From: Antitrichia curtipendula
Taxonomy: Eukaryota; Streptophyta; Bryopsida; Hypnales; Leucodontaceae
NCBI GenBank assembly: GCA_951230915.1
Contig: OX579636.1
Location: 39,931,912 to 39,995,911, forward strand
Direction: 5' to 3'
Length of the DNA stretch: 64,000 bases
Numbering within the stretch: position 1 is the first letter of the stretch; every line of letters starts with the position of its first letter. The position numbers and the translations under genes are program-made. The notes under the pieces are model-generated. The model made no database searches, had not been told where the DNA came from, and saw nothing but the letters and a program-made list of their open reading frames with translations. Of the stretch, positions 16,168 through 38,749 are shown in pieces.

Positions 16168-16773
16168 TTAATCTTGTCCCATTTGATGCGTAATTCTTAT
16201 ATGCAAAAAAAAAAAATTGTAATTCCAAAACAAATTGATCAATAATCAAGCTCGCTATACTTAACCTCTTGAGTCTTTTTATTGCAATTAATTGGTGGTT
16301 GCATAGTCTTTAAAGGGCTCACTTGTTATTACTAAAGTTTATGTCCAATTATGATTGTGCAACTTTATAACTCATAAAAGAGTCTAGTAGGAAAACAAAT
16401 TTTAGTCAAAATAAAACATGGCTTGGAAAGAATGTTAACATATGCTCTTAATTTTACAAATTTCTCTTTTCTTCCCATTCCTACATGATTTGAGCCATAA
16501 CCTTATAAGAAAATCAAGAAGCACCAAGCAACCCTACTAATCTTGCCACTAAAATATAAAAAAATATTTGTTTCCAATACACTTCTAAAAACTTCATTCA
16601 CTTCATGTAGCTTCCACAATACGCTCTTGAAAACATTTGTAATCCATCCAATGCATGCTTGTTGTTTTAACCCTATAAAAGACTAAGCATATTTCTTATT
16701 TGTTGAACATTATCGTATATCTTTGTATGAATGTACTTATTCCTATTTTCATCAAATTGGTCAAATAAGGAGG

Positions 16774-16802
16774 TATGCCATATTTAACTACTTCTAGACT
16801 TT
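16774..16802 (+). repeat. Left terminal inverted repeat
   Basis: Begins TATGCCATATTTAACTACTT and pairs with 38,719-38,747 inverted (27 of 29 positions). A further sub-repeat tagtccagaatt at 16,807-16,818 echoes agtccagaatt at the right end. Confidence 0.9.
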
Positions 16803-16828
16803 CAATAGTCCAGAATTAAAGAGATGGT

Positions 16829-18085
16829 GAAATCCCCCGATCTACCTCAATTTCTGCACTCATAAGTCTTTTGGAGAGTGCTTCTTCGTGTCCTTGGAAA
16901 TGCTAGAAAATTTGTAAATTACTGTTCCGTAGTTGACTGTGTCAGAGTTCACGTGTCTGGATTGGGAGATCTGTGGACCAGGTTTCCATAATTTCAGCAT
17001 CCCGTTTACAGCTCACGTCCCCGAACCTATCGAGAGATCCCACGATGACAACTAGTTCAAGCAAATACGGCTCCGAGCCCTATATTAATACCTCACTCAC
17101 CATTCTGTTTGAAACGAATGCATTGTGAGATCCCCTGACAAGGTTGTCGAATATGCGGCAGCTTCAGTGACAATCTTTGTGTCGAAGCACTACAGTTTGA
17201 TTCATGTGCTGTAGACAATGCAATTCATAGATACATTAATGGAAGAAAACTTGAAATTCACTGGAAGTCCCAAACATCACTTCAGAATTATCAAACAAGC
17301 ACTTCCTCTTGGGAAGAAGGAGACCATTTTTATCTAAGCAGGAGATCCCCCGATGGAGTGCTAACACAAGAAACATTGTCATTTCACACTACATCCAGTG
17401 GAATGACAGGACTGTAGACAAGTGAGTCACAAGTGCTCAGACATTCAGCATACATCTGTAGACTGATGAATATCGGCTACTGTACTATTCCATCTGAGGT
17501 ATTTCAGTTTGTGTGGAGAAAATCGGGGTTCTATCACTACTGAAATACATCCAATCTCTGATGTCCACGTAATTCTGAACATGCAGAACCCAGTCGACTG
17601 GAATTCCAACATAGACTGAAAGGGTAAAAAAATAAATGCGTATTCAGACTAATCTTTGTGCATGTATAATCCGAACACTGTATTTGTCATTGATAAAAAC
17701 ATGAACCACTTCCATTTCAGCAGAGGAAAGAAAAACAGCCCGCACTTCACATATCAGGTGACTGCCCGTGTTTCGCACGCATAATGAACACCATAAACGA
17801 ATTCATATATTCATCAAGATTTATGATGCTAATACATGTCACATAAAAACAACACTGAGAGGTTCATCGTCTAACAGTCGAACTCAAACAGGGTAGTGTA
17901 CATAGAAAACCTAACTTTCGACTAAGCTACCTCAACGTGGAAAGCCTCGTGGGATCTCACGATTTCCGCAGCAACCTGAACAATGCATCGTAAGATCACA
18001 TGATGGCCGCGACAACCCCCGCAATGCATCGTGAGATATCACGATAGGCGCGCTACTCCACCGTATGTCGGGAGATCTCACGATG
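16829..18085. repeat. Left subterminal dyad-motif array; no gene
   Basis: Copies or half-copies of ATCGTGRGATMYCACGAT lie at about 17,032, 17,121, 17,339, 17,946, 17,987, 18,028 (atcgtgagatatcacgat, perfect dyad) and 18,067, with weaker ones near 16,829 and 16,966. The 1.2 kb between the TIR and the transposase stop codon shows no gene and probably serves as 3' leader or subterminal region. Dense subterminal motifs are known as transposase-binding sites in plant elements such as En/Spm; that role here is inference. Confidence 0.8.
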
Positions 18086-18087
18086 GA

Positions 18088-21000
18088 TTACTGTTCTCGG
18101 ACAAGGCGCTTGATCACGGATCCAACACGTTTGCCCGATTCAAATTTGCCAAAGGCAGCCTCCCTACTCTTCTTAGGAATGGTCCTCGATTTCGGATCCA
18201 CTATTTTCGACCAATTCGCATACGCCACAGCAGCTGCGTCAACCCAAGTAGGGGCTGAATCTTCAACAACCTATTTACCGTACCAGCAATTCCGGTACCT
18301 CAACTCCAGCGTACTTTCGGAGTTATCGGGTCGCCAATACTGAATCAAAAACTTCCCGTAATTTGTGTCTCCTTCCAGTCTGCATACAGTAGACAATGCT
18401 CTTCCTTGCCAAACAGCACATGTTTCCGGGACTTCCGGCCTAAGAAGTACCCATGAGCCCGGTCGTATGTCCAGCCACGGATTGAATCTTTCCATTGGCG
18501 CTTCATTTGCGGGGCCGCAATAAGGTTCGGGTTCCTCTTCTTCCTCCGGAATCACATCCATGGGATTTCCTTAGCGAGGGACTCCATTCTGCGCTACCCT
18601 CCAATTATACTGTAGCCAGAAGCCTTCCACCAACTCCGGAGGACACTCAGGTAGTGGCTCCTTCAGCTCATCCAGTACGCACTTCCAGTATTCCACGTAA
18701 GGGCCGAATGCAGCTGCAAATCCCTCGCATTTTGACATTCCTTGTTGCCAATACTGAATGTACTTCTCGAGTCCCACCAAAATGAAACCCTTGTTCACGA
18801 TAGCTTTCCGCGCCATTTTCCTTGCCTTCTCTTGATTTCCACCCGCGACGGGAACCTCGTTGCCTCACATGGGCTTAAATAGAACAGGCTTCGGACAACC
18901 GTGAGGGAGCATGGGGCGACCATTTTCATCTCTCCTCCAAATGCGTTGAGAAGGTTTATTAGACGGAAGCCACTTTGAATCAACCGCTGACTCCTTGTAA
19001 TTCATGACGGGGACCCCATCAGTGTCCACGTAGAACTTGAACAGGTGCATCTCCCCCAATCCAATTAATCTTTCGGAGCCACCGGTTTGGTAACCCTCCA
19101 CGAACGCCTTGAAATCCCCCACCTCCTGTATAAACTCCGACAGAAATGACAATTCTTGGGACTGCATGAAGGCTTTCATGAGGTCAGCGACGACAAAAGT
19201 GTTCTTGGTCTTGAGCGCCTTCGAAAGGTGGCTGAAATAGGCATCGATATCCTCGTGAGTATGTCCGACTAGTAGAAACCCGACCTGAATTTCCTTGAAG
19301 ACACCTCGTGCAGTGAGCAACGACAAGAATGCCATTAGGTATTTGTTCTTGTTATCCTTAGCAGAGTTGTCGAGTTGAAGATATAACTTTTCAGGAAGGG
19401 GGGTCCTACCGACCCGAGCTCCTGGTTCAGTGAGAGTTAGGCTGTCCATACATCTCGACTTTCCTTTGAGCAGTGCCTCAAACATTGGATTCGCCGGAGG
19501 GTATGGAAAGAGGTCGCCTGCCTCTCGAATCGGTGGACCCTCCAGTCGGCGCAACAACCTCGCCAAAGACGAAATGGTGAAGTTGGAGTCTGCCGGCCAA
19601 CACGATGGAGCATAATGGGCGTACGCACCGTCACCATGACCATGAGCTACCATTCCTGTGACGCTCATGGGAAGCTGCCCCAAACCCGCCGTGGCCTTTG
19701 TCGTCACCCGCATTCTAGGGAGAGCCGTCTTCGCCGTATCCATCTTGTCGTGAATTATACATAAAATTCTCCGTGGATCTCGTTTGGATTCCTCACGCCA
19801 AGAGGTATACAGACGACGGCAAGATGCTTGGTGATTCAGATGATGAGCCCTCTGATTCATGAACTCCACGTATTGGGGGCTTCCCTTCGGGGACTTCAGG
19901 ATGTACTGCTGTAGATCGTCGCACAGGGTACATTTTGCGAACGAACTCCCAACAGACTTAATGTGGACGTTGTTGAAGTGGTCCTTCTTAATTCTACTAA
20001 TGGTTGACTGGCTAATGGGCGGCAGACCGTAGTCGGCATTCAACTGGAAAAACAAAACGACTAAGCTTCAGAAACAGTACGAGCAAAAAGAGCCAGCGAA
20101 CGAAAATGACAAACACTATTCCAGAGAAACGATCGTGACATCCCACGATCGTTGATCTAGTCAAGGGATCTCACGATCACTAACTGCATTACTCAGAATC
20201 AATGGGTTTACCTCGTTAGCATCCGCTTGGACTCGTTTCCAGTTTCTGCCTGCAGGCAGATATTTAAGAGTGTCCACTCGGCCATTACCGATACTGCGCA
20301 TTTGGTAGGGCATTTGATCAGCGTTCTCGTCAATAATGGCTTTCATAGTCCCTGTAACCTGAACAGTCCGAGTCCTCGGTCGCTTAATCCCTTTGTTTCC
20401 ATGCGTCCCCGAATTCACGCCGTCGTTGTACATCTCGATGTAAGTGTGGTAGGTCAACTTTGGAATTCCGTGAATTATGTACCACGCCGTACCACAAACT
20501 TCCACTCCCTGTAGTGTGATGAATTTTTGCTTCCGATCCCTATTCATTTCGTGGAGCTGCCCTCCCACTGCAATCCCATATTCGCGGCGGTCCTCGAACG
20601 ACTTCAAGTAGTATTTCTGCCTAAACAACAACGTCAACTCCTGGTTAAAATGCTGACAACACAGATGTTTGCAGCACTTTTGCGAGCTCACTTTGCGGAT
20701 CTCTTTGTCTGCCGTTTTCCGGTCTAACTGTGATTCCTTCAGCTTTATACTGGGTTTACGGACTACAAAGCGATATGGTGCTTTCATTCTACCTCCGAGA
20801 TAAGCGAGAGGGTCGTCTGTATCTGGATTGGCGGCAAAATGATCCACGGTCTCCTTCAACAACCGATTGCTTGGAAACCAACACTCCGACAATGGCCACC
20901 TCTCGTGCGACATTATGGCTTCCTCGTTACCCACAAAAACATCGAGGACTAATACACCCACAAAGCCCTCACCAAGTGTTTCATCCTGGAAATGATCCTC

Positions 21001-21543
21001 CGCCCTCCAGCAAATGATACGGCCCGACGAAACGTGGAGTCCCCATCCGTCTTTCCGATGAACATCAAGTGCAAACCAGGCCCCTTGGCGAATATATGGA
21101 CAGGGATCCATTGGGGGATCCCTCGACGCTCTTACAACATCGGCGATTCTCCACAGCACAACACATCCCTGAACATCATACAATGTTCTATAACTCCTGT
21201 GTTGGGGGTTAAATCTTAAGTTCTGGAACTCTAACTTTATGGAATGAGGCTGCACGCCTGCACCAGCATATAAATCCAGGGCTCTACAAGTAGAGGCACA
21301 TCCAGCCACTGGCCCTGAGGACGAACCTCCTTAACAATCCCGGATCCGACCTCACCGTATCCAGGAACAAAAAGCTTAACCCAATCACCGATCAAGAACG
21401 ATGGAGATTCATCGCTGGACTCCTGTGATCCACTTCCCACATGCTCACCGCGTACATATGGAACAATCGCATCAGCAGTGGATTCACTAAATGAATCCAT
21501 TCTCGGTGATTTATGGCGAAGAGATCTCGAAGATTTGTTGAAC
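18088..21543 (-). pseudogene. DUF7869-type DDE transposase gene of the large element (decayed)
   Basis: Exon 1 runs 21,543-20,212 (donor GAG|GTAAAC) and exon 2 runs 20,043-18,088. A 5' leader exon ends at 22,718. The ATG is at 21,500 (MDSFSEST); the frame upstream is closed by a TGA in the leader exon with no earlier ATG. Features in order: a Cys/His patch (CCKHLCCQHF), VCGTAWYIIHGIPK, a second Cys pair (CTLCDDL), then the DDE-like core with IIHDKMDTAK, LYLQLDNSAKDNKNKY and VGHTHEDIDAYF, all hallmarks of the DUF7869 family as I know it. A C-terminal segment (WLDIRPGSWVLLRPE to IQYWRP) resembles a BAH/Tudor-like fold (inference). Lesions: a frame change between 21,237 and 21,309, and in-frame TGA 18,867-18,865, TAA 18,573-18,571 and TAG 18,273-18,271. 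The open frame resumes after each and ends at TAA 18,090-18,088. It would cut and join the element in the nucleus if repaired; this copy is probably inactive. Confidence 0.8.
20130..20180. repeat. Dyad motifs in the transposase intron
   Basis: The 168-bp intron (20,211-20,044) carries atcgtgacatcccacgat at 20,132-20,149 and tcaagggatctcacgat at 20,161-20,177. Confidence 0.85.
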
Positions 21544-22717
21544 CTACAAAAATCATGAACTATACCAGGAGTTAGTTTAGTTAAGAGATCGGCGTTCCCT
21601 TCGTAGCCAAGGAACCTGACGACAATGTCTTCAGTTCCGGTTGACTACTAAGGAAACACTTGCAGTACGATATACAAGATACCTAGTCAATCATCAACAA
21701 TAGTGTCAGGGAATCTAAGGATAGCAGGTCTTGGCAAATGAATAGAGTACCCCGACAAGGTACGCAAGAACATCTGATGTCCACAAGCGATCGTGAGATC
21801 ACACGATGCCCATGAAGGGAGCACTAAGCCAGTACGTACATTGAAGAGTAGGCCACTGGAACCAGACAGAAAGGTCCACACACCAAGGATCAATGCGTCG
21901 TTGGAACCCACGACACACAGGTCGTTGGGTCACCCTTTTCAGAGATCGTAGCATCCCACGATACTCCTACCGAATTACGCCTAGAGGGAGTGAAATGCTA
22001 ATAAACAAGTAAACGAACATAATTATGCAGGCAGATCCCAATCTCATATCTAATTGGTCGTGTGATCCCACGACCAAAACATTCTAGGATCCACGAAACA
22101 GACATCCCGAGATCTGCTCATTAGAAAGAGAGACAGTTGGATCCCTTGGTCGTCGGGAACCGAAGAAGACATAGTCCCGAGTTAACGAGACCCAGAACCA
22201 AATTTGGTGTAGTGAATCGTTACATCCCACGAAACCAAGATCGTGAGATCCCACGATACTACGATCCTGTGATCCTCCGATTTCTGGGTCGCTGATTTCC
22301 TCCATTCAGAGATCAGCGGGAGTCACTAAACTTCAGAATCACCAATCGTGGGATATCACGATCCTGTCTGATACGTACACGTACTACTCTATCGTATATC
22401 ACCGTATCTAGACTTTGTCCTCAACATACGACGGCACTGTGGCTGTATTTACAGGCACATTAAGCTCTGTCTTTTGCCGTCTCCAAGTGAACCTCCATGT
22501 CACCAGAGCGTGGTGATCGCTTCACTAGGTGAGCTTCACTAGGTGAGTTTATCCTAAGTAAATCTATTGCTCGGAGCAACCATCCGCAGTCGGACTCTTC
22601 TGCACTCTGAATCTACACGCGCTTGAAGCGTTTCACAAAATTGTAGTGGCATGCATTCGACTGATGAAACACTCAGGCTCGAAATTCCACTGTAGTTGAT
22701 AGGAATGCATTGCTTAC
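21544..22717 (-). promoter_or_regulatory. 5'-leader intron of the transposase gene, filled with dyad motifs
   Basis: The minus-strand donor CGAG|GTAAGC lies at 22,717 and the acceptor TTTTTGTAG ends at 21,544, so this ~1.17-kb stretch reads as an intron in the leader. It holds about ten dyad motifs, among them 21,790-21,807, 22,057-22,075, 22,240-22,257 (atcgtgagatcccacgat) and 22,345-22,362 (atcgtgggatatcacgat). First introns with repeated protein-binding motifs often act in control; that is inference here. Confidence 0.6.
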
Positions 22718-23480
22718 CTCGTGAATAACGGCCCGATCAAAGCATCGTCCGCCTCCACTCCAATCTCGTCACCTACACCGGTAGACACCGACTCCAATCC
22801 CCCGCAGCGTGCTCCACTTGTTCACGTGTGCAAGCGAAAAGGAGAAGCTGAAGGTTCATTTCGGGTTATAAAACACCTACACTGGAATTCAAGAGCTGTG
22901 GATTCCCACCGTGAGTTTTCAAATTTTCAAGCGTTCCTTTTTTTCAAATGTTGGTTGGATGCGTTCTAGATTGCCGAGCCGCAATCAAGACGTGGAGTAC
23001 GTGCGGTTTTACACTTTGGAAGTGGAATGAACTCTCGAATTCCGCGCTGCTCCGACCACAAGGAGGGAGGGCGTGGGGCTCTTGACTTTGTGAATGGAAA
23101 TTCGCAGCTCCAGTGTTCCCTGCATTCCGGATCTTCACTGACATTCTGAAATTCGCCGCATTCAAGGATGGTATCCCTGCACGGTTTCAGAGGAGTCAAT
23201 GATGCTTCGAGCAAAGAGGATTCGGTCTTCCAGACTTTCATTTCCCGGATTTCACACGCGTCCAGGTCAATACTTGGACGAGTAACTTTGTGTCCCTCCA
23301 CCTCAAGGCGATCTAATGACCTGAAGACCAACATAACGGTTCCAGAATTGCTGTGCCCTGGTCTGTTCCGTGCCTAATGTGCTCTGTAGGTAGGGGACTT
23401 TTTTGGTTCAATCTGTCAGTCGGTTTAGGCGAGGAGCGGGGGTTTGTTTTCCTTAGCCCCAGACTGCCTGCGGTTTTAGG
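22718..23480 (-). promoter_or_regulatory. Leader exon and probable promoter of the transposase gene
   Basis: This part is clearly richer in G+C than its surroundings and lies just upstream of the leader intron, so it probably holds the transcription start. A minus-strand open frame of 122 codons (23,334-22,966) matches nothing I recognise and is not joined in frame to the transposase; I treat it as chance or leader sequence. Confidence 0.4.
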
Positions 23481-23489
23481 GTGTGTACT

Positions 23490-23863
23490 AGTGATCCCAT
23501 AACTGCTTTACTGAATTTAGTGAAACATGTTACCTAGGTTATTAGGATTTAGTGCAATATGCTACCTCCTCAAGACAAATGGGACTCGATTTTGGCTACC
23601 TTGAGGGTGAGTAGTATTAGAAAAAATAAAGAAGATAGGATTTTGCAAGTTTTAAAGAATCATTGGGAGTACTATAATACAAAACAACCAAAATAGCTGC
23701 TAATTTCAATATAGAGGAAGTTGCACATTGCCTACCAAATTCTATTGTTTGTTGCAATCTTGACTAAAATCTAATTTTTTCAAGGATTTTTTTTAATACA
23801 CTTTTAGCTCCTGAAGTTTTTCAGTAGCAATGGAGCAAAATTTAGCCACTTCTATGATCATTA
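23490..23863 (+). mobile_element. 374-bp non-autonomous element with 9-bp target duplication (copy inside large element)
   Basis: An inverted copy of 39,627-40,000, and exactly the same length, 374 bp. It is flanked by gtgtgtact (23,481-23,489) and gtctgtact (23,864-23,872), a 9-bp duplication with one mismatch. The ends are only weakly inverted (GTGATCCCATAACTGC against AATGATCATAGAAGTG). Nine-bp duplications are typical of Mutator-like elements. No coding sequence. Confidence 0.85.
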
Positions 23864-24180
23864 GTCTGTACTGGAACCCCTAAATGGCCAAGGCACCAGT
23901 TAGGTTTAGGTGGTTTCCGAAGAAGTGTTGAGGTGGCAACTTACAAGAAAATGCTCTAGCCAAATATTTTAGTATTCAGTTAAATTTTATATGGAGTTAT
24001 GTTTTCATCCACATTTTTTGATGAGTGTCCTTTATACATGACATTTTCATTCAAAATTTTAAAAAAATTAGAGCAATTTGGCATTGTCATCTAAATTTTC
24101 TTCAAATTTCTTCATATACTAGTAGGCTCGATGCAACCCATTTATTTTTGAGGGATGGAGCTATACAAGGCCAAAAAATA

Positions 24181-24254
24181 GGGTTTACGGATTAGGATTT
24201 TTAGGATTTTAGGGTTTAGGGTTTTAAGGGTTTAGGATTTAGGATGTAGGGTGC
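24181..24254 (+). repeat. Degenerate telomere-like TTTAGGG tract
   Basis: About nine imperfect units (ggattaggattt, tttagggtttaggg, aagggtttagg) resembling the plant telomere repeat. Short interstitial tracts of this kind are common in plants. Confidence 0.6.
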
Positions 24255-25529
24255 AAGGCCCCCGTAGGTGGTGTCTAAGAAACTTTTTTTGGAACCCTTT
24301 CTTAAGATGCAAATGAATTTCACTAAAAGTCAAACCGTACCAAATCCCTATTTTTAGTAGAAAATATTATTGGAAGATTCTTTTTTAAGTCTAACCATAA
24401 ACCCAAAAACCAATTTTGGGGCATGAATGATTATGATTTTTCCTATTCAAAATTTGTGCAAAGGGTTCCATTGCAATCTTGACTTCTTGTATTGTTCAAG
24501 GGTCTTGGAAATTTGCCTCAAATACTCTAGATTTTAATGAAAAAATCATTGACACTAGGAATTCTTTATAAAAATTGGTAGTGTAGATTTTGAGATGTCA
24601 TAAAATGATTGGGCTTATATATTTGATTAGGCCCTTCAACCTCATATTTTGGGGGTCTTGAATGTTTTAGATTTGACATGCAGAAGGAGAATGAAAGGTT
24701 TTCATAGTTTTAACACATTGATGATCAAACATTACAATCTTTCAATTGATACAAATTATGATGTTGTTGTGTTTCCTTTTCCTATATGATATTTAACATG
24801 TGTAGTTTGAATTTGTATGGTTACAATACCCCAAAATTTGATTCAACTTATCAAAAGGTTGGCTTCTAGTTCAATATAGAGTAAATTCAAAGAGGCAAAA
24901 AACAGGCCTTTGGTATTTAGAGGTTAACGTTTCCAATGAAATTCTAGAGCATTGGAATCCAAAACAAAAACAAATTCTCCAAAAAAAGAGGTAACTATTG
25001 AACCCCTCATTTTTTATTAAATGAAGGATTAATTTTCACCTGAATCCCTTCATTTGCAAAAAGAATTCACAATAATTTCAGGTTCACAGGTGTTCATACT
25101 TGATATTTTATATTTGAATGACTGAAGTCTTAAGGTCTGGGTTCCACGGTTATAAGGGCGATTGTCCGCGGTTTAAGGACGCAAAGTACACACTTGTACG
25201 GTTGAAGTTTAACATGTGAAGAGTCATGATTTTTGGGTTTAAGGTTTAGCATTTAGGAGGGCATTGTTCATGACTAATAATGCTCAGGCTTAGGATTAAT
25301 TCATTTCAGGGTCATGGTTATTGGTTTAAAGTTTAGGTGTATACTTCATGGTTTAGGGTAGTCAATTCTAGAGTCTTTGATTTTAGATAGATGATTTTCG
25401 GATTATCGGTTCCAGAACTTTTTGTTCAAGTTTTCTAAATTCATGCTTAATGGATTTTGAGACTTGTCACAAATGATTTAGAAATTATCACTAAATAAAC
25501 TTGTATTTGGACTACATCGTTTTTCTAGG

Positions 25530-26236
25530 TTACGTGGTCCATTTTGGGGAAAAGTTGCATGGATTGTTTCCGCTCATGAATCTTAACTTCATGAGCGGAG
25601 TATTTACAACTTCTACATTTTTTTTTTCATCCCAACGTGTACTATTTTGAATAGGACTTATGGAATGAGGTTTCTTTGAACTGCAGGACGGAAGTCCCAT
25701 TTCTTAGTTACGTGGACCATTTTGGGAAAAAGTTGCATGGATTGTTTCCGCTCATGAATCTTAACTTCATGAGCGGAGTATTTACAACTTCTACATTTTT
25801 TTTTTCATCCCAACGTGTACTATTTTGAATAGGACTTATGGAATGAGGTTTCTTTGAACCGCAGGACGGAGGTCCCATTTCTTAGTTACGTGACTGGTCC
25901 ATTTTGGGGAAAAGTTGCATGGATTGTTTCCGCTCATGAATCTTAACTTCATGAGCGGAGTATTTACAACTTCTACATTTTTTTTTCCATCCCAACGTAT
26001 ACTATTTTGAATAGGACTTATGGAATGAGGTTTCTTTGAACCGCAGGACGGAGGTCCCATTTCTTAGTTACGTGACTGGTCCATTTTGGGGAAAAGTTGC
26101 ATGGATTGTTTCCGCTCATGAAGATTAACTTCATGAGCAGAGTATTTACAACTTCAATCTACATTTTTTTTTTTTCATCCCAACGTGTATTATTTTGAAT
26201 AGGACTTATTGAATGAGGTTTCTTTGAACCGCAAGA
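25530..26236 (+). repeat. Satellite of four ~180-bp units with hairpin arms
   Basis: Units start with ttacgtg at 25,530, 25,708, 25,886 and 26,068 (periods 178, 178, 182). Each contains CCGCTCATGAA, a 7-bp loop, then TTCATGAGCGG (11-bp inverted repeat; the fourth unit has one mutation in the arm). A partial fifth unit sits at about 26,617-26,720, beyond a ~375-bp interruption. No coding potential. Confidence 0.9.
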
Positions 26237-26611
26237 CGCCGGGAGTAACATTATATTTATTAGTTTGGGAGATTGAGGACCTCCCAAAATAATCATGTTG
26301 ATCTCAACTTAAATCAACAACTCGCATTTAAAATGAGAGGTTTGATGTAAATTGACATAAAACCTTTCAATATTAGGTCAAATCTTGAAAGATTTTCTAT
26401 CCGTTTAACTCGAATTGAGTTAAATTGATATAAAACCTTTCAATATTAGGTCAAATCTGAAAGGTTTTCTATCAATTTAACTCAAATCAACTTAAATTGA
26501 CAAGAAAACCTTTCAATTTTAGCTGAATTGATATAATACTTTTCGTTGAGTTTTTTTTAAATAACCTCTCATTTCAATGGAAAACTCCCATTTGAATGTG
26601 TTGTTGTTTTG
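26237..26611. repeat. Insertion inside the satellite with internal direct repeats
   Basis: This segment separates the fourth satellite unit from the partial fifth. It contains the repeated phrase ataaaacctttcaatattag (about 26,350 and 26,430) and a diverged third copy near 26,500. It probably is a small element, but I could not define target duplications. Confidence 0.45.
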
Positions 26612-27660
26612 AGTCCCATTTTTTAGTTACGTGATCCATTTTGGGAAAAGGTGCATGGATTATTTCTGCTCATGAATCTTAACTTCATGAGCGGAGTATT
26701 ACAACTTCTACCTTTTACTTAAAAACTTAAGTTAATTATCTATAAATTTGAAGACAGTGTTTTTGTCTAATTTGAGTCAGATTTTTAGAAGTTCAATATT
26801 GCCTTCCAATTTGGTGTTTCAGTGAAAATCCTCCGCTGTCCCTCTGCCAATCCAATTTGAATGCAAGCGCTTTACTTTGCTAAAGCCTCAGAATTGGAAG
26901 CCACCGGAAATTTATCATTGATTTAGGATGCAACTGAAGTTAGGCCACAATATACCCAGAAAATGCAGGACCTAAATCCGGTAGCGAGAAAAATGAATTT
27001 GATCATGAAATTGGGGTCTTCACGCTTTGCTATTCATATTTCTAATTAATAGCAATAAATATATTGAGGGAGGTGACTGTCTCAAATTTTTTTGTCTTCC
27101 AATATAATGAAAGCATCTTGCAGTTTCAGTTATCTAATAATTTGCACTCCGTTCTCATAGTCGCTCGCGGAGTTATAGTATTAAAACATGGTCAACTTGC
27201 GGTGCTTAAAAACAAAAATTTCAATTTTGGGGCATAAAAAATGTTTGTTTGAAAGGTTCTATGATGGGAATAAGGACTTTGGACTTCATGTTTTCCTGGA
27301 TCTAACATCGCTAAACCCTCTTATACTCTTATATTTTTAGTATCACCCTATGATTGAAGGTTTTATATATGATTTGAATCATTACATGAATTTTATTAGA
27401 ATCAATTTCTATAAGAAAACACTTTATTTTTTCATTTGAGAGTTTGTTTAATTTTTGGGGCATTTAGACTTTCATATTTGAAGCCTATAATTTACTAATA
27501 GAGGAGTTCAAGACATGCAAGTAACTATGACTATGAGTATAAATGGAAAAGAGAGTAACTTAATTCTCATTTATGGTAAGTTCATGGTAACTTCATTTTC
27601 ACTTATGGTATCCCATTTTCAATGATGATAACTTCATTTTCACTTATGGTAAGTTAATAT

Positions 27661-28869: not shown

Positions 28870-29159
28870 ATGGCAAGGACTTCAGCTCTGTGTACAGGAG
28901 GTCAAGTAGATTGGAACGCCCCGTAAGTTTCTAAATGCAACCCTCATTTCCTTTTCGTGCATGCAATGCGAAGCTTTAGAACAGTGCAATTAAAACTAGG
29001 GTGAAGGCTGTTGTTGTTGTCCTGTGATTTAGGGTACTCTGCACTCTCTTTACTCTTTGTTACAAACCCTGTCGAGAGTTACGGTAGTGCAAATCAGTAG
29101 AACAATACACGGTAATAAGTATCCCACCTTATTACCGTGCTTTGAACCCCTAAACCCGT

Positions 29160-29840
29160 GCATCGTGGGATCCCACGATGCGCCATTTCTTAGTCAGTTG
29201 GCACTGAAAATCATCGTGAGATATCACGATAGGTTACAATTTCAAGATATTAGAGGACTGTCCATCGTGGGATCCCACAATTAAGGCTCATGGAAGAGCC
29301 TAATTATGTCCCGAGGACCGTTCTCGCTGGAGTAGAACACGCCACATCGTGGGATCCCCCAATGAAATGTCGTAGAGACTCCAAGGAAATGCAAACCAAA
29401 CCTCAAGTGCAAATGAGGAAGGAACGAAATCCGACATTGTGGGACATCACGATGCATCATTGTGTGCCGCCTCATCAAACACAAACGAACAGGTGAATAG
29501 GCCTCAAAGATTACTCATCGTGGGATCTCACGATCAATGTAGACAATACCCTGTGAAAATCATTAACAGAAGGCGGCCGTGAAATATCCCGAAAGCATGA
29601 CCGACATACTTCAGAGGTCATCGTGATTTCCTACGATGTCTATGCCATCGTGATATCCTACGATCTAGAAGCTCTCATGATAGCCTTACACTCCACCGTC
29701 CAGTTAGTTAGGTGATATCCCGTTCTATATTGTCCCAAAACAAGGAGTAGGCGTCATAACGACTGCTAACTAGAATGAATCACAGATGTTTTAAGTCTCA
29801 AGGAAATGTCATAAAATCAACAATCGTGATATCCCACGAT
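29160..29840. repeat. Dyad-motif array in intron of the rightward gene
   Basis: The intron 28,923-29,934 carries about twelve motifs in 0.7 kb: 29,162-29,179 (atcgtgggatcccacgat, perfect), 29,213-29,230 (perfect), 29,264-29,281, about 29,345, 29,436, 29,518, 29,577, 29,619, 29,646 and 29,710, and 29,823-29,840. It mirrors the array in the first intron of the divergent transposase gene. Confidence 0.9.
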
Positions 29841-30190
29841 CGTGTTTGTAATACAAGCATATAGAGAGAATTAGCATTGCAAGACTATTGATTTTCCATC
29901 TCCCTCACTAACATCACTGTCTACAATGCTGCAGAGAACATCAATTCGATGACGGTCCGGAAGATTGTTCACCGAGGAAGCTTAGTCACTTTGTCGACTC
30001 CTGGATCCGCGACTTCAAGTACAAGGGTCCACATAAACCTGGAGCTATATTCCAATGCGACCAAAGCGTTATGGAATGGGGCCTGGTCTGGAAGGTTGAC
30101 AATGACGGATCAGCTTTGATTCTTCCCTCTATCCTGAACAACGGCAAGGGACATGGAATAGGCGGTCTCAAGGTCGTGGAAGTGCAAGGA

Positions 30191-30422
30191 CTTGACAACA
30201 AAACAACGCTTCTTGTCATAGAAGAGAAGGTACCCCTATCCACTGAGTCCATTACCTACGGCTTCATCCTCGACTACGAGACGATGAGCATGGGACTCTG
30301 TGAGACCTTGACAACAAAACAGCGCTTCTTGTCATAGAAGAGAAGGTACCCCTATCCACTGAGTCCATTACCTACGGCTTCATCCTCGACTACGAGACGA
30401 TGAGCATGGGACTCTGTGAGAC
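30191..30422 (+). repeat. 116-bp direct tandem duplication inside an exon
   Basis: cttgacaacaaaacaacgct starts at 30,191 and recurs, with one visible base change, at 30,307. The period of 116 is not a multiple of three, so the duplication shifts the frame and ends the upstream frame at 30,337; the downstream frame resumes at MSMGLCET (30,400). Either a recent mutation or an assembly artefact. Confidence 0.95.
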
Positions 30423-31437
30423 CATGACAGCCAAGGCGCATTTGATGTGCAAGGACCCCGCGAAGCCTTCTTGGAAGCCTCAAGAAATGAAGAACCAATG
30501 GGATATCATTCAGGAAGATTTGGCTGAATCGAGTGCTGCCCCCAAGGCAGTCGAAGAGGATGCTCCCAAACCGTCACCGGCCAAGAAGACCAAGAAGAGG
30601 AAGTCAGTGGTTGGAGCTCCAGGCAATGACGATGATGCCGGACAGGGTTCAGCCGGAAAGAGGAAGAAAGCTGAGACCCCGCTTTTGCTGCACGAGGTTG
30701 TCGCTCTAGGGGAAGCAGAGATCAAGAAGATGCGATCGGAGCAAATGATGGCGATGAAGACATTGTACGAGAAATCCTTCAGTGGCTTCTACAAATGGGG
30801 AAGAAAAGCCCTTCGTGACAAAAATGGGGAGCTGATCCGCGTGAACATGAAGTGCTTGCACGAGGCATCAAAAGCACTACTCGTATACAAGGTCATCGAT
30901 CCTGAACGGCTGGACAGAGTCACGAGGAAGGCACGTATCACGCCAGAGTATGATTCAGAGAGCAGAGTGATTATAGTCCTCCCACTTAAAGTTGGCCCAT
31001 ACGGCCCAAATGGCGTGGTGACGCACTACGAGAAGACACCACCAAAACCAAAAATCTTTGAAGACCCGAAGACGCAATACTTCATTATTGGGGGACAGCA
31101 CACTGTCATTCTGTCAAGGCCTTCAAGAACCTAATTGATGCTAATGAAATTCCTGAGGCCGACAAAAAGCTCGCGTCTACGTTCTACATCATTCCAGTCT
31201 GGACACCCAAGGTCAACCACGGAGACCTACTGCACTTCTCGCGGGCACTGAACCAGAATCTCGCTGGTGAACAAAAGGAGATGAATTTCACCAAGCAGCT
31301 CTTGTACGCAAGAACGAAATGGCGCAGTATGGGAAGTCCGCAGCCCGCCATAATGGGGAGAACTCACACGCAAGAGTATAATGTAAGATTCCAATTCATA
31401 TTTATGTTGACTCTGCATCTCAATGGAATACTTAGCA

Positions 31438-31815
31438 GTCATCGTGGGATCCCATGATCGACTTGTACTTACAAACATAAGCAGACGAAATTGTAATGAA
31501 ATCACTGTGGGTTCCACCATAGCTCCGGCAAAGCATTCTCAAATCCTCGGTGGACAGAAATAAGGTCTGTGTGATATGGTTTCTGGCTTCATTTCTAGGA
31601 ATTGTATTGTAGATTCCTGTTCTTGACTTTTCGGATCAACTATCGGAATATCAATCGTGTGATCCCACGATGTCCATGTTTGTGTTCTACTTCCATTTCC
31701 TTCACAATGCCGTCATTGTAATATCCTCTGATGATTTTCTAGTCTATTCCACACAACTGACGCTATGCTGATTTGTTTTACTGTAACTATCGATGATCGT
31801 GGGATCTCACGACTT
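31438..31815. repeat. Dyad motifs in the intron 31,383-31,875
   Basis: Motifs at 31,441-31,458 (atcgtgggatcccatgat), 31,654-31,671 (atcgtgtgatcccacgat) and 31,797-31,814 (atcgtgggatctcacgac), plus a weak one near 31,503. A further intronic copy lies at 33,654-33,671. Confidence 0.85.
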
Positions 31816-34413
31816 CGTATCCCATTCATGGTGTAAACCTGATCATTGGGTACTCACTTTGACTCTGTTGTGCAGGCATTTCATCCGTGCTTGGTGACAA
31901 TCTTTGCGGGTGTGAAGACTGTTGATAACTCGGAACTGCGAATACCCCTGCTCTTCCTGGAGGACGACGCCGACGTAAAGAGGTGGATCGACATTGAAGA
32001 GAAATTCATAAAAGGATATCTTCCCGATGGAACGGGCCTAGTCGATGTATGCGGGAAGCAGGAGCGAAAACCCCTAACGCAGAACGACTTCAAGACGCTC
32101 TATGGACTTCGACCGGAGGACATAAACTACCTTGCGGATCAAGTGGAAGCCAACGTCCTCTGTGTAAAGAGTTCAAGGATGACAGGTCAGAAGAGTGGCC
32201 GGCAGAATTTCAAAATCATCCCTCTCAATACCGCTGGTGCAAAATTGAGGCTGGTGAGGGCCATGAAGAACGAGCTCTTGGCACACTATACAAATCAACT
32301 GCTGCCCATGAGGAAGATGGAGTATGTACCATATCTGGAATCCACTTGGGAGAACTTTGCGACCGAGAAGGACATCGGAAGCGACGAATTAGATTTGTGG
32401 GTGAACAAGGCCATGGAAGTCCCTGCTGGGAAGAAGTGGCTGGAAGGCAGGACAAAGGGATTGAACAAGACGTTCGACCCAAAGGACCTCCCCGAATTCG
32501 TCATTAATATGTGGGAGTCGTTCTTCAAGTCTACTGTGGAGGATGAAGTGACACAGGCGCATGTACAGGATTTCTCGAAGCACTATCTGTGCAAAATGAT
32601 GGACAAGAGAACCTGGGATATCAGCAAAACTTTGTCGGCCCCAGACGTCAAGCCATGGCAGGGAAAGAAGAAGCGTCACCTTTACATCTGGTTCATGTTT
32701 GAGGAGGCATCCTATGGATCCCGTATGAAGATGCTGGAGTTTGGAAAACTGAACAGACTCTTCAATGCTCTGGAGTTCTACGACCCTAAGGACAAGACTG
32801 TCTCACTGCAGGCTGGCGCCGTCCTCATCACAGATGCCGAGGGATTCCACACTATTGCGAGCTATCTCGAGAAAAGAGATGAGAAGATGAGAGCAAGGTT
32901 GTGGGACTGGCACGTTGTGACTTACATGGCTGGGCCGGACGACTTCTTCCCTATGTCACCGGCCGGGGAGGGGTTCAACGTCTTTCTCGTCTTCATCTTC
33001 GAGCACATCCCTTACGGAACCAAGTACGATTCCTTCAAAGCCTACTTCCCTGGACTAACTGATCTAAAGCAGACTTACAGATCGCAAGACATGAAGGATG
33101 TCCACCCGTATTGGCGATAACCGCATGTGCCGTACCTGAAGATCAAGACGGCGGAGGAGATATTTAAAGGACTCGCATACACCGACCTTGTCCTCATGAA
33201 TGTCAACGGCGGTCCCGAGTTCACCTACCTGGGACTGGTAAGGTCTTGGGCTCCACAATCTTCCTTTCATTTCGAGCAACGCAATGTTTTGGTCCTGCCA
33301 ATTCCAGGCACACTAACAACTGATTGGTGTATTTCAGAATTTAGGAGGTGTTCAAGTGCTGGAGGTAGTGCATTCCGCTGAAGCTGTGACGGCAAGTGAG
33401 GTCTTCGCCAAACAGATTTGGGACGACAAGGAAGCACCCGCGGCAGCTCCTCCAGTTCCATAAGGCACCGGCGAGGCCGAGGATCAACCGGACATGGAGG
33501 CTGATAATGACGAAATCAACCCATCCGATCCTCTAGATTCCCATGACGAGCATGAGGACAATATAGTGAATGAGGTCATCGACGAATCCCATGAACGTAC
33601 AGGAACAAGGTCGGTTGATCACAACGAGGTTAGTGTGCGTTAATTGCTAAACCATCGTGAGATCCCTTGATCTTGGGAAGCTCACATTAGTGATTTCTGG
33701 TGTTTGATTGGGATTCTAAATGTCCAAGTGATTTGTTTTTGGATTCGACGCAGGAGGAAGATGCGCCTTCAAGAACTCCCGCAGGACGATCGAAGGACGT
33801 AAACGTCACTGACCCCAACGTTCAGTCGCCTCCAATGGGTCCAAGCAATATGGTGGAGCAACAGGAGCATCATTCTGAATCGCCAGCACCAAGTCGGCTG
33901 GGAGATGTAGCTAAGCAGCCACAGAAAGCTCCTCAGCCGGAAGGAGCTGGACGACAAGTACATTTCCTGTCCAACAGTTCAACAGGCGATGAGGTTACAG
34001 GGTCTCCGCTCGAGAACCTGAGGACATCCAGAAGGAAGACTGGAAGTAATCTGGCCAAGTATCTTGGCTGTGGAAGAAATACTACTGGGAAGAAGGCTGC
34101 GAAGCGACGACGGCAAGGTAGTGCAGCCGCGGAAGGTGGTCAGTCCCAAAGCGAATCCGAACAGGGACGTCGCCGAGGCGGAACAAGATCCGCAGATGTC
34201 AACTGGGATTGTGAATCCCGAAGCATCACACGCGGCAGGCATACTTCTGACATGTGCTTGCCGGCCGTCAACTCTGGAGACTGTCGATTTAGGCGTTCCC
34301 GATGAGGAGGTGCCGCAGACAGCTAGTGGCGATGGAGTTATCAGGAATGTGCCCGATGGGACAGAACCTGCCCGAGGGATGAATCAGACGGAGGTCAGAA
34401 GAATTCCAGGTCC

Positions 34414-34770
34414 ATCAGGGGATCCCACGATGAACACAAGGACTGTGTTGGACATAGTGAAGGGTCTGGAAAACTCAGATGAAAGCATAGGCCGCCAATC
34501 AACTGAAGGGTGCCGAGATCTTACTCTTGGTGGAGACCTCCCGGGGATTGACGCCAGCAGACTCGAGTTGGAGGTTCCCGCGATAGATGCCCCTGCACCA
34601 GGCTCTGGAAACCGTGATAAGGGGGTTGGGGCGAGCACACAGGCATCGTGGGATCCCCTGATCGTCCAGGAAACGGAGGTCGTCATGGCGCAGGTTGATC
34701 AGGCAGCTGGCGAGGATATTGACGGACATCTGGTAGGGTTAGGAACTTCTACATCGGGGGATATCACGAT
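34414..34770 (+). repeat. Three dyad motifs inside coding sequence, all in one frame
   Basis: atcaggggatcccacgat (34,414), atcgtgggatcccctgat (34,645) and atcgggggatatcacgat (34,753) lie within the exon 33,754-35,471. They are translated in the same phase as SGDPTM, SWDPLI and SGDITM. Being 18 bp, a motif adds six codons without shifting the frame. Confidence 0.85.
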
Positions 34771-36222
34771 GGTCGCTTCGCGAGGTCTCCTGCTCACGGG
34801 AATAACGGTGGACAAACAGGAGGACACCCTCGTTGACTTGGTACCCATGAGTCCGAGATTCAGACCGAAGGTGATTGTGGATATTGCTTTTGTCGCCTCC
34901 ACTGTTGCACTGGCGGTGTCAAGTGAAGTGGCTCCTGGAAACGGTGAGGGAATTAACGAAGAAGTGCTGGAGGCCTTACCATATGAGGCCGCAGACATAA
35001 TGAAATTGTGCGTCGTGGATGCGGTCAAATCACTTGCTGAATCTCCGAGTAATGATTTAATTGCGTTCGATTTCATCAACCCTAAGGATCCTTTTCGAAA
35101 GACGAAACAGCATACACAAGCCGTAAGGCAAGCGCACCGATTCTTGTACAAACCATTCTTTAACTGGGCATTTCAGAATGGGCCGCGTGCAGGATTGGAA
35201 GGAGGGGATCCAATGGATCAACTATTCAACGAGGAAGGCGATGAGGAAGAGTAAGAGAGCGACGACGACATGGAAGAGGGGAAGGGGCCAATTTTTAGCG
35301 ACGATAGGGGGAAAGAGGAAAATCGCGGCGACAAGAAGGGGAAAGGGCCAATGGTTCAGGACGAGATAGGAAATCAGCAACGGGACGGTGATGAGGGCAA
35401 GAAAGCATTTCAGGGTGTCGACAAGAGCAAAGAAGGGCCTCCCCGAAAATACATCCGACCCCGGATTCCAGGTAAGAAGTTAACCAATTTTTATAATGCT
35501 TATACTTGAGAACGGATTCTTAACTGGACTTTAACGCGCTGTTTGTTGGATTTTCAGCAGGTTGTCGAGTCACCGAAGTCTCTCGTGAAGAAGTGCGGAA
35601 GCCGTTGAATAAGGTAGAACCGCGGCCGTATTTTGTGATCTTTGACCCGAATGGAGTTCTAGTTCACAAGACTTTCGATGATCGTAATAGACGTCGCTAT
35701 GCTGTGCGACCGAGTTGCCCACACTTCCTGGACTGGGTGCATAGGACTGTTAAGCTCGCATTCTGGAGCAGTATGACAAAACAGAATGCGACATTCGCTT
35801 TGAACCAGATGCTATCCGGGGCGGTTGTGAAGCCGAAGGATGTGCCTGTTCTCACGCAGGAGGACTACACACTCTCGTCTTACAGAGACCGTCGTCGTCC
35901 GGACAGGCCTTACTTTCTAAAGGATCTGTCACACTTCGCCCGTAAGCTGAATTTGCCGACATAGGAAAATATTCTACTCATCGATGACGACCCATTAAAG
36001 AACCTCCAGAACGACTGTCATAGCGCCATCTTCCCCAGAACTTGGGATGGTGACATGAGAGATGATGACTTAATGGGGAAGTTGTTTCCTTATCTCAACC
36101 AACTTTTCAAGTCATAGGAAGCTGTCCCAGCGTATGTTAAAGCCCACCCGCTTCCTCATGGTCAGAATCCGGAGATCCCGTTTACTAGACCGGGATGTGA
36201 CATATTGAAGGGTGTAATTTAG

Positions 36223-37672
36223 ATGTGGTTATTCTTCTGCGTGGGACTGGATCCGGAGATATCACGATCTCATTCTATCATACTTCATTACTTACTGTTT
36301 AATACTCTTGAACTCACTGTGAATTTTGTAAATGCATTTTTTAAATACTTGACTTTCCCATTTCTTAAGAGTCATTTTAAATTTTACTCATTTTGTAAGG
36401 CACATTGTAAATATTATTGTATGGTTATATGTGAAATTCATTTGTGAGTTAGAGTTATGATTTCAATTGGATAATTTTGACCTCCGTAATTATCGTCGTG
36501 CGTGAATATACTAAAATGTGTTTGTATAGTATGCAAGTTCATTTCCAGTCGTGAGATCTCACGATGGATTGTAGGGGCGATTTTAATTGACATGTGTTGT
36601 CGTACTCATTGTGCACAGCGTCAGTCTCTTTTCTTCTTTTTGTTAAATCGCATATCATGTTGCTGGGGATAATGAAATTGTATTTAACTCTGAAGTATTT
36701 TATTTCTGTTTCTCCGAAACAATTGATGGATCATTGCATTTAGAATGGTAAGCAAGATTGAAGCCATGACATATGGCATTAAGAAATTAAAGCAAGTAAA
36801 GAGATAAATGAAGAGAATGGAGCAAAGAGAAACATGAAGACTAAGTGAAGGAGCAGAGTGGGGGACCTACACTCCAACAATCTCCATCACGTCTGAAGAC
36901 GATGGTAAGGTCCCATCATGTCTCGCGAAGATGGGGGAATGCTGGGAAGCGGTATCTTCAGTAGATTTTATTAGTGTGGGCCTCATAATGTTCAGCTGCT
37001 TAGTTCAATCAGGAGATCGCACGATCTTCCCTCTTGCCGTCCAAGGAATTTAATGGATCACCATGTACATGTCCGATAGTACAAACAGTTGGACATCTTT
37101 CGTCCCCGTAATGTCCTCCATTTTGGTTTATGTAATAGGGGATGATAGTTGTAGTTGTGCTTATGCAATTTGTTGGGCGTGTTCCTCCTATTGTCAGCAA
37201 GACTTCACCCTAAAACCGCTGAAGTCTTGAGTTGAATTTGTTTACGTAATCTTATTTCTATGGCTTGATTGGGAGATCTCATGGTCGTGTGACTTTGCCT
37301 CTAATGGATACTCTGAACTTTGTAATTCTTTCGCTGCAATGTAATGCAGATCCTTCTTTTCTTTTGTATTAATTTTTGGATCTCATATTATTTATGCCTA
37401 ATTCCACTTTCTATGTTTAAAAGAATCATTTATCTGCATGCCTCACTAGTCTTGCATTTTTGGACTGCAGTCACATTCTACACGTAATATTAACTTTCCT
37501 AAGCTCATCTGCAAATGAGATTTTCACTTGATGTTCTCTTTTCTAATCCGCCAGTTCTATTCGGTACGCGGTTCTGTAGTAATGCATATTCATCGTGATA
37601 TCTCACAATCATTCGACGTCTTCTTCTGTCTTTACATCATTTCTGTGTGCTGAGATGTACTTGGTCTTTGCA
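36223..37672. other. Intergenic or intronic stretch with dyad motifs
   Basis: No gene found. Dyad motifs at about 36,249, 36,548-36,565 (gtcgtgagatctcacgat), 37,014, 37,267 and 37,592-37,609. The stretch may be an intron joining the two FCP1-like modules, or the spacer between two genes. Confidence 0.5.
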
Positions 37673-38150
37673 GAAGGTGATGCTCCTTGTACTGACTGGG
37701 GATCTCTGCGTTAAGGGCGGTGTAGAGGATCTTCCACATAATATACAAATACGGGCTGGCTTCCACGATCTTCTGCGATATCTTGTTGAAAAAACTCACT
37801 GTTGCTTGTGGGCGGCAGTGCAACCTTCGACATTAGCTGTTCTCCTTCGACGTATTCTACTGCTGGAGATTCTTTCAAGGTTCCTTTTCTTTTCTGGATC
37901 CGACAATCCACGCAAGAACCAACTGTATCCGCGGCGTCATGCACTACTGAGGACTCTTTCAAGTAATCCTCAGACGCGCAGGGTACTCTTGAATGACACT
38001 GTCGTAATGCTTGTTCTTGATCCTCTGAATTGGGCACGTCCGCATTTACTTCAACCGGCGTTGCATGTGAGGGATGATGTAGATACTTCAGATTGGCAAT
38101 GTGCGCACGTTATAGGACCGCGCTTTGATTGGTCGTGGGCCCAGAAATAA
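37673..38150 (+). CDS. Second FCP1-like HAD module (exon, possibly separate gene)
   Basis: An open frame of about 158 codons that begins after an acceptor (gtctttgcag, ending 37,672) and ends at TAA 38,148-38,150. LLVLTGDLCVKGGV occupies the place of the FCP1 catalytic loop. IRAGFHDLLRYLVEKTHCCL and WAAVQPSTLAVLL correspond to the RPGFHDFL and WSA-STL segments of FCP1/SCP-like phosphatases, and VVMLVLDPLN resembles the late DDSP-type motif. The nucleophile Asp of DxDx is not in place, so it is probably catalytically dead or degenerate. No upstream coding exon could be assigned; it may be the last exon of the gene ending near 36,222 or a duplicate. Unlike the first module it has no internal stop. 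Confidence 0.5.
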
Positions 38151-38718
38151 GCATAGGTTCACATGGAACTAGTGGCACTTATTTGATTGGCACCCATTCG
38201 ATTTGAATGGCACGTATTTGTTGCATCCAAATGATTATAAAGTCCTTTTCGCTTGTTATCACTTGGGTTGTGTACAGTCATTGCTTTGGCTGTTTTGTAT
38301 TGTGTTTTCAAGTAGTGGGTTCGCCCTATTCGTTTCACCAAAAAGTAAAAGATGATTATGAATTGGTGAATCCACCTTCTGTATTTCACTGTTATTATAA
38401 CTTATCAAATGTCCGTAACTGCATGAATGTTTTGCCTCATCACATCTTTCTTCTTGGGTAATGCTCTGCGAAATATGTCGTGACATCTCCCGATCTGTAA
38501 TGTCGCATATTTAAAGCCAACCCTAAATACGAATGCATCAATTTGTTCCTACACTTTAAATCCAAAAGGGATACAATTCCACTGCATTAACAATCTCCCG
38601 ATGACTCCACATCCTAAGGCAGTTTAAGCCTCCATCGAAAGGCATTGCGGCCTCAGTTTACATAAGATCAGGATATCCTACGATGCCCTAAACCTTCACA
38701 AAGTCCAGAATTCCCGCT
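38151..38718. repeat. Right subterminal region with dyad motifs
   Basis: Between the last coding exon and the right TIR. Motifs at 38,477-38,494 (gtcgtgacatctcccgat), about 38,593 (half) and 38,667-38,684 (atcaggatatcctacgat). No gene seen. Confidence 0.75.
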
Positions 38719-38747
38719 AAAGTCCAGAAGTAGTTAAATGTGGCATA
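38719..38747 (-). repeat. Right terminal inverted repeat
   Basis: Reads TATGCCACATTTAACTACTT from the outer end inwards on the minus strand, matching the left TIR at 16,774. Confidence 0.9.
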
Positions 38748-38749
38748 GG

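What the first reader, a model, noticed from the sequence alone, without database searches (positions are those of the whole stretch)
16829..38690. Dozens of copies of an 18-bp dyad motif confined to the large element
ATCGTGRGATMYCACGAT recurs roughly 40-50 times, many copies perfect palindromes (for example 29,162-29,179, 29,213-29,230, 22,240-22,257, 18,028-18,045). I noticed none outside 16,774-38,747 and none in 22.4-29.1 kb. Variation falls at matching positions of the two half-sites (GGATCC, AGATCT, GATATC centres), as expected if a dimeric protein reads outer ATCGTG half-sites. It could be a transposase or accessory-protein platform, a self-marking system, or a target for silencing.
Basis: partly seen in the sequence, partly recalled or inferred. 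Interest (0 to 1): 0.92.

Follow-up and report, generated by a model that had tools for sequence, protein, structure and literature searches.

The report
Self-recognition dyads in giant plant transposon
A 22-kb plant jumping gene is studded with about 40 copies of an 18-letter mirror-image DNA word, its relatives carry their own versions of that word, and the pattern suggests that the element makes a fast-evolving protein which recognises its own DNA, perhaps to escape being silenced.

Summary
Confirmed with corrections. The window holds a complete 22-kb DNA transposon (16775-38746; ATGCC... inverted repeats; AGGT target duplication; unoccupied sites in paralogues). It carries 42 copies of an 18-bp dyad (half-site ATCGTG); none lie in the other 42 kb. 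Thirty-eight of 42 are non-coding. Halves vary independently, as expected for a dimeric protein, not a hairpin. Only 1 of 36 good copies is a perfect palindrome. Genome-wide the motif is clustered: 580/560 exact matches per strand in 400 Mb, reversed control 0/0. Five relatives of four diverged subfamilies carry arrays of related dyads with shifted half-sites, partly in 41-, 48- or 57-bp tandem units. A sibling with a related transposase and the same terminal repeat has none in the 7 kb read. In 13 paired loci the accessory protein is 50-53% identical to the window's, the transposase 83-87%. Best reading: self-recognition sites for the element's own accessory protein, working like the VANC anti-silencing system of Arabidopsis VANDAL transposons, with unrelated-looking proteins. 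Binding and anti-silencing are inferred; autoregulation and a transposition-complex role remain open.

The parts
16775..38746 (.). complete DNA transposon, about 22 kb, with inverted terminal repeats ATGCCAYATTTAACTACTTCTRGACTTT
   Evidence: terminal inverted repeat (I2); unoccupied site or close variant in three tandem paralogues of the flanks; same ends in another copy at C8 and in relative B2
16771..16774 (.). target-site duplication AGGT, left
   Evidence: of two other elements looked at, one has CTGG on both sides and one CTTC/TTTC, read by eye
38747..38750 (.). target-site duplication AGGT, right
16824..18084 (.). motif cluster 1 (8 copies), downstream of the transposase gene
20132..20177 (.). 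two motif copies in a transposase intron
   Evidence: gap between the reading frames of neighbouring exons, homology of the downstream exon
21110..21127 (.). one weaker motif copy inside the transposase coding region
21790..22362 (.). motif cluster 2 (8 copies), upstream of the transposase gene
22363..29161 (.). motif-free island between the two divergent genes; relative B2 has its own of about 5.2 kb
29162..29840 (.). motif cluster 3 (9 copies), upstream of the accessory gene
31441..31813 (.). three motif copies in accessory-gene intron 1
33654..34770 (.). four motif copies: one in an intron (33654), three in a low-complexity coding exon (34414, 34645, 34753)
36251..38684 (.). seven motif copies downstream of the accessory gene
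18124..21644 (-). transposase gene, DUF7869 (PF25273), in exons (approximate model); in this copy broken by three in-frame stops relative to P0002
   Evidence: Pfam E 9.4e-45; 69% identical to P0002 over 18124-20052; stops; weak fold match to integrase/mariner catalytic cores and a C-terminal BAH-like part
29912..36119 (+). accessory gene in several exons (approximate model: two conserved exons, a disordered stretch, a NIF/FCP1-like part without the usual catalytic aspartates); broken here by a frame change in exon 1 and by stops
   Evidence: collinear in B, C and F; NIF E 1.4e-5; reading frames against open exon 1 and longer frames in other copies; catalytic residues
37599..38150 (+). small conserved reading frame, also in subfamily B (39% identity); not matched in C or F

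Best explanation
The 18-bp dyads are cis-acting self-recognition sites of a family of about 20-22 kb plant DNA transposons. The most likely reader is the accessory protein of the element itself (gene at 29.9-36.1 kb), binding as a dimer to many sites spread through the non-coding DNA of the copies. By coating the promoters, introns and flanks it most likely keeps the element's own chromatin open (anti-silencing) so that the transposase is made, as VANC proteins do for VANDAL elements. SHOWN: transposon, confinement, non-coding bias, independent halves, presence in diverged relatives, half-site shift between subfamilies, and faster divergence of the accessory protein than of the transposase. 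INFERRED: that the accessory protein is the binder, that it works as a dimer, and that the outcome is anti-silencing.
For: Enrichment and confinement. 38 of 42 sites non-coding, 5.8 against 0.46 per kb, p = 1e-10 on approximate gene models. Genome-wide counts with empty controls; of the 60 distinct places listed (C1 and the first half of C2 only), 43 lie in clusters with a transposase or accessory match within 20 kb, 17 do not, and both protein lists are capped. Relatives with accessory proteins 44-51% identical (C and F 85%) carry related arrays: B1 17 sites in 10.7 kb, B2 33 in 21 kb, C 12 and F 11 in 20 kb each, and H (only exon 1 seen) 20 in 8 kb, against 0.02 per kb in Markov controls and 0 in 49 kb of neighbouring DNA of B1, C and F. 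Half-site position 5: T in 57 of 70 half-sites of A, 16 of 34 of B, 2 of 36 of C, 1 of 34 of F; A against C or F p about 1e-12, C against F p = 0.31, and C and F are sister proteins. Tandem arrays of the motif in C (41 bp), F (41 and about 57 bp) and H (48 bp). Thirteen B/E-type loci (13 of 15 typed): accessory 50-53%, transposase 83-87% identical to the window's. Sibling T: same terminal repeat at the end seen (3 mismatches in 28) and a related transposase but 0 of these dyads in 7 kb. Motif-like footprints in the translated ends of two database proteins of unstated origin, P0121 and P0124; indirect.
Against: No binding, methylation, expression or small-RNA data. Across 30 close copies the motif is no better conserved than its intron, so selection since the last burst is not shown. 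No known domain was recognised in the two conserved accessory exons, and the model of exon 2 is poor (pLDDT 52). Whether T lacks the accessory gene is not known: only 99 and 102 of 442 candidates were scored, so the link motif-accessory rests on co-occurrence. No transposase match was found within the DNA read beside B1, C or F (19-28 kb upstream). The unprompted palindrome count found the dyad first in A and in B, but not in C or F, where other words ranked first, and AT-rich words scored highest in the window flank; C and F were then searched with an ATCGGG-type seed. The half-site comparison used hand-picked sites (35 of 42, 17 of 17, 18 of 25, 17 of 23), tandem copies are not independent, and the motif core itself changes little. 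17 of 60 listed places had no known partner gene.
Confidence: 0.5

Rival explanations
1. Autoregulatory operator: the sites are enhancer or operator sites for a TE-encoded (or host) transcription factor that controls the two divergent promoters, with no chromatin role.
For: Dense clusters flank the two divergent gene starts in A, and H has arrays just upstream of both genes.
Against: Copies continue in introns and downstream of both genes up to near the terminal repeats; 33-42 sites over 20 kb are more than a promoter needs.
Confidence: 0.22
2. Transposition platform: transposase or a TnpA-like accessory protein binds the sites to bring the ends together, as in En/Spm.
For: TnpA of En/Spm binds repeated short motifs (recalled); some copies lie within 100 bp of the element ends (16824, 38667).
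Against: Sites are not subterminal but fill the non-coding element outside the island; sibling T, with the same terminal repeat at the end seen and a related transposase, has none in the 7 kb read.
Confidence: 0.15
3. Host silencing target: the dyads are recognised by a host factor or feed small RNAs.
For: Non-coding VANDAL DNA is a target of RNA-directed methylation (PMC10398659, abstract).
Against: A parasite should lose such sites; instead they are present in diverged subfamilies with subfamily-specific half-sites. CpG observed/expected is higher in the element (0.84-0.89; island 0.76) than in the flanks (0.42-0.55), the opposite of strong methylation decay, though a recent insertion would explain that too.
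Confidence: 0.06
4. Hairpin or neutral satellite: the dyad acts as single strand, or spreads by slippage without function.
For: Tandem arrays in C, F and H; no excess conservation among 30 close copies.
Against: No compensation between halves (p = 0.94); dispersed rather than tandem in A and B; present across diverged subfamilies.
Confidence: 0.05

Closest known systems
VANC/VANDAL anti-silencing system, Arabidopsis (PMC5735166, passages read; PMC10398659, abstract and outline read)
   Same: DNA transposon with extra genes; short motif enriched in its own non-coding DNA; related elements carry different motif versions; motif partly in tandem repeats; variable accessory protein.
   Different: Motif an 18-bp dyad, not the 9-bp YAGTATTAY or the AGTTGTCC types; DUF7869 transposase; the two conserved accessory exons match no Pfam family; binding and demethylation not tested.
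TnpA/subterminal repeats of En/Spm (CACTA) (recalled; only a search listing seen)
   Same: TE-encoded protein thought to read many short repeats in the element.
   Different: Ends ATGCC rather than CACTA, 4-bp rather than 3-bp duplication, sites not subterminal.
Bacterial ParB/parS and Noc (recalled)
   Same: Dispersed palindromes; exon 1 has an 'IIGGQHTVEA...NQNL.GEQ' stretch that recalls the ParB/sulfiredoxin fold.
   Different: No Pfam ParB match listed at E up to 10 in 8 sequences (the program's filters drop most weak matches); only DUF6551 at E 0.19 in one of them.

Membership tests
VANC-type anti-silencing system | TE-specific short motif enriched in non-coding regions of the element | tested here: met
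   38 of 42 non-coding on approximate gene models; 0 in the rest of the window
VANC-type anti-silencing system | motif differs between related elements | tested here: met
   half-site shift A/B/C/F (hand-picked sites), H
VANC-type anti-silencing system | targets form tandem repeats | tested here: inconclusive
   yes in C, F, H; dispersed in A and B
VANC-type anti-silencing system | accessory protein more variable than the transposase | tested here: met
   13 of 15 typed loci had a partner: 50-53% against 83-87%
VANC-type anti-silencing system | TE protein binds the motif and removes silent marks | not testable with these tools
   needs ChIP or gel shift and bisulfite data
VANC-type anti-silencing system | homology to VANC proteins | not tested
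   no VANC sequence was compared; no Pfam family matched the conserved accessory exons (weak chance-level rows only)
VANDAL / Mutator-like transposon | Mutator-like transposase | tested here: not met
   among 10 reading frames of the element scanned, only DUF7869 and NIF matched
CACTA (En/Spm) | CACTA ends, 3-bp duplication, subterminal repeats | tested here: not met
   ATGCC ends, AGGT duplication; sites spread through the element
DUF7869 transposons | PF25273 domain in a mobile element with terminal inverted repeats | tested here: met
DDE transposases | RNase H-like catalytic fold | tested here: inconclusive
ParB/parS | ParB domain | tested here: inconclusive
   resemblance recalled; no Pfam ParB match
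FCP1/NIF phosphatases | DxDx(T/V) catalytic motif (recalled) | tested here: not met
   FDPNG, LDLNG, LEPSG in A, B, C/F

The most novel reading that the evidence does not exclude
A eukaryotic transposon family carries a parS-like self-marking system: a TE-encoded, ParB-like protein fused to a dead CTD-phosphatase-like domain loads at dispersed 18-bp dyads, spreads over the element and shields it from silencing, and protein and dyad co-evolve so that each subfamily protects only itself.
Probability: 0.1. Interest if true: 0.95.

Novelty: new variant of a known kind. Interest (0 to 1): 0.78.

Why it matters
Sequence-specific anti-silencing by transposons is, in the papers seen here, described for VANDAL elements of Arabidopsis. 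A second system with unrelated-looking proteins, in a different transposon family, would show that TE self-recognition arises repeatedly, and would give a natural set of protein-dyad pairs for studying how DNA specificity evolves and for locus-specific epigenome editing. The subfamilies A, B, C/F and H make the idea testable directly: swap proteins, read which arrays respond.

Tried and rejected
Nested insertion as the cause of the motif-free island: first suspected (a 10-bp direct repeat TCTGCACTCT at 22599 and 29038; expected about 0.16 times by chance by my own estimate). Set aside because the sites listed show gaps of 6.5-6.6 kb between the like sites in two other A copies (20 kb in a third) and B2 has its own 5.2-kb island. 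The 24.3-24.9 kb stretch is a dispersed repeat found in both orientations. An old insertion in the family's ancestor is not excluded.

Hairpin or cruciform: rejected by the half-shuffling test.

Conservation across close copies: uninformative. The first run mixed strands and is void; the corrected run (30 copies) shows no excess: intron 1 motif columns 0.978, other columns 0.972.

First boundary and duplication (16774, GG), my reading, were replaced by 16775 and AGGT after other copies were seen.

Relatives in viral contigs: none. Solved-structure searches of three alignments: nothing useful. The accessory model was too poor to search with. Rfam: nothing at the gathering score. A ParB profile comparison was begun and dropped: two accessions were not held, and phage P1 was fetched but not used. 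DUF7869 is in 0 papers of the library; searches for transposon anti-silencing, ParB-like proteins and palindromic motifs listed VANC papers and fungal TET transposons, and no title that I recognised as about this family. Genome-wide counts for the terminal repeat, for ATCTGG dyads and for the T array could not be had: the machine stayed busy.
Full report
THE OBSERVATION. Scanning the whole window on both strands for ATCGTGRGATMYCACGAT gives 36 sites with at most 3 mismatches and 42 with at most 4, all between 16774 and 38747; outside there is none at up to 4 and three at 5. Markov resamples of the element contain none at 3 or fewer. A weight matrix made from the 36 sites finds 42 sites scoring 12 or more inside, none outside, and none in 22.4-29.1 kb (the matrix is trained on the inside sites, so the empty 42 kb outside is the fair comparison). 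Only one good copy is a perfect palindrome. The two halves of a copy do not compensate each other (p = 0.94), which argues for half-sites read independently by a protein dimer and against a folded strand.

WHERE THE SITES LIE. With approximate gene models (homology to P0002 and P0121, splice sites by eye), 38 of 42 sites are non-coding: 5.8 per kb against 0.46 per kb in coding sequence (the island was left out of the length). They cluster downstream of the transposase, in its intron, upstream of both divergent genes, in the first accessory intron, and downstream to the right end. The island between the two gene starts is empty, in relative B2 as well.

GENOME-WIDE. The genome holding the window has 400 Mb in 303 contigs. 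ATCGTGNGATNNCACGAT occurs 580 times forward and 560 reverse, the reversed pattern never (one place can count on both strands). The rows listed give 60 distinct places on C1 and the first half of C2; 43 lie in clusters with a transposase or accessory match within 20 kb, 17 do not, though both protein lists are capped at about 100 scored candidates. ATCGGGNGATNNCCCGAT occurs 177 and 178 times, control 0/0; I did not test where most of those places lie.

RELATIVES. Accessory exon 2 has 4 matches in the protein database and exon 1 has 3. In this genome 99 of 442 candidates for exon 2 were scored: 47 at 88-100% including the window's own, one at 68%, 51 at 49-53%. Three diverged loci were read first: B1 (dispersed type), C and F (near chromosome ends and on small contigs). 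All three carry the accessory gene collinearly. An unprompted count of gapped 6-mer palindromes put ATCGTG-N6-CACGAT first in A and ATCGGG-N6-CCCGAT first in B; in C and F other, mostly AT-rich or array words came first, and AT-rich words scored even higher in the window flank. The tandem repeats of C and F then showed the dyad, and a matrix seeded with ATCGGG-type words and refined on each gave 25 sites in C and 23 in F against 2.2 and 1.4 in Markov controls. In one fixed broad scan at score 13, B1 has 17 sites in 10.7 kb, B2 33 in 21 kb, C 12 and F 11 in 20 kb, H 20 in 8 kb; 0 in 42 kb of the window outside the element, 0 in 19.3 kb beside B1, 0 in 20 kb beside C, 0 in 10 kb beside F; Markov controls 0.02 per kb. 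C and F have 41-bp tandem units and F a run spaced 56-58 bp. H, at C2:1.71 Mb, has accessory exon 1 at 42-47% and transposase parts at 51-56% identity to the window's, and seven exact ATCGGGAGATCTCCCGAT copies in a 48-bp tandem array upstream of the transposase; H was found because one search listed it, so its richness is selected.

CO-VARIATION. Half-site position 5 is T in 57 of 70 half-sites of A, 16 of 34 of B, 2 of 36 of C and 1 of 34 of F (hand-picked sites, see Tried and rejected). C and F proteins are 85% identical and share the motif type (p = 0.31); the others are 44-51% identical and differ (p from 0.0016 to about 1e-13). In 13 of 15 typed loci of type B or E a transposase lies within 26 kb; the accessory protein is 50-53% and the transposase 83-87% identical to the window's. 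In 29 A loci, the window's own included, the means are 92.7 and 95.4%. Translated ends of P0121 (SWDPSM) and P0124 (WRSPD twice), database proteins of unstated origin, look like read-through of related dyads; this is indirect.

A CONTROL. A sibling at C8:20.42 Mb has the same terminal repeat at the one end seen (3 mismatches in 28) and a related transposase (82% in the core; 43-89% in other parts) but not one dyad at score 11 in 7 kb, read as two pieces on either side of the core exon. It has instead a 28-bp tandem array (7.4 copies) with a different dyad, CTGGATCACTCCAG, upstream of the transposase. So the 18-bp dyad is not simply the transposase's site. It is one element only, and whether it has an accessory gene is unknown.

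AGAINST. Among 30 close A copies the motif is not better conserved than intron DNA. No DNA-binding domain was recognised in the accessory protein, and no functional data exist. B1, C and F show no transposase within the 19-28 kb read upstream; B1 may be truncated, since its likeness to B2 stops at its promoter.

INTERPRETATION. The simplest account is a TE-encoded self-recognition system. Its logic is that of VANC proteins, which bind short motifs in non-coding parts of their own VANDAL elements, cause loss of methylation across the element, and differ in motif between related elements (PMC5735166, passages read; PMC10398659, abstract). I claim 'works like', not 'is a' VANC system. Rivals are autoregulation and a transposition complex.

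Noticed in passing
L054 2157-2364 (G000:C8:20.42 Mb): A sibling transposon with the same terminal repeat has a 28-bp tandem array with a different dyad (CTGGATCACTCCAG) upstream of its transposase: possibly a separate protein-motif pair.
   Followed up: partly
G000 C25, C113, C275, C1 and C2 ends (coordinates): Subfamilies C and F lie about 50 kb apart, alternating on several small contigs and near chromosome ends, with nearly identical open accessory exons: apparently a large amplified subtelomeric unit.
   Followed up: no
window 35524-36119: NIF/FCP1-like domain without the catalytic aspartates in the four subfamilies read (A, B, C, F): a likely pseudo-phosphatase carried by a transposon.
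   Followed up: partly
window 31062-31382 and alignment A4: Accessory exon 1 has a stretch that recalls the ParB/sulfiredoxin fold (IIGGQHTVEA ... NQNLAGEQ); only DUF6551 at E 0.19 matched.
   Followed up: partly
window 1-16.7 kb and 38.8-60 kb: Diverged tandem duplicates of several kb with B3-domain genes; the transposon sits in one unit.
   Followed up: no
window 25535-26723: Repeats of about 182 bp with an inner inverted repeat in the motif-free island.
   Followed up: no
G000 C1:4803559/4803587, C1:13332949/13332977, C2:24064776/24064804: Pairs of ATCGGG dyads exactly 28 bp apart at several places, perhaps a small repeat family.
   Followed up: no
window 30191-30422: 116-bp tandem duplication inside accessory exon 1 of this copy.
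   Followed up: no
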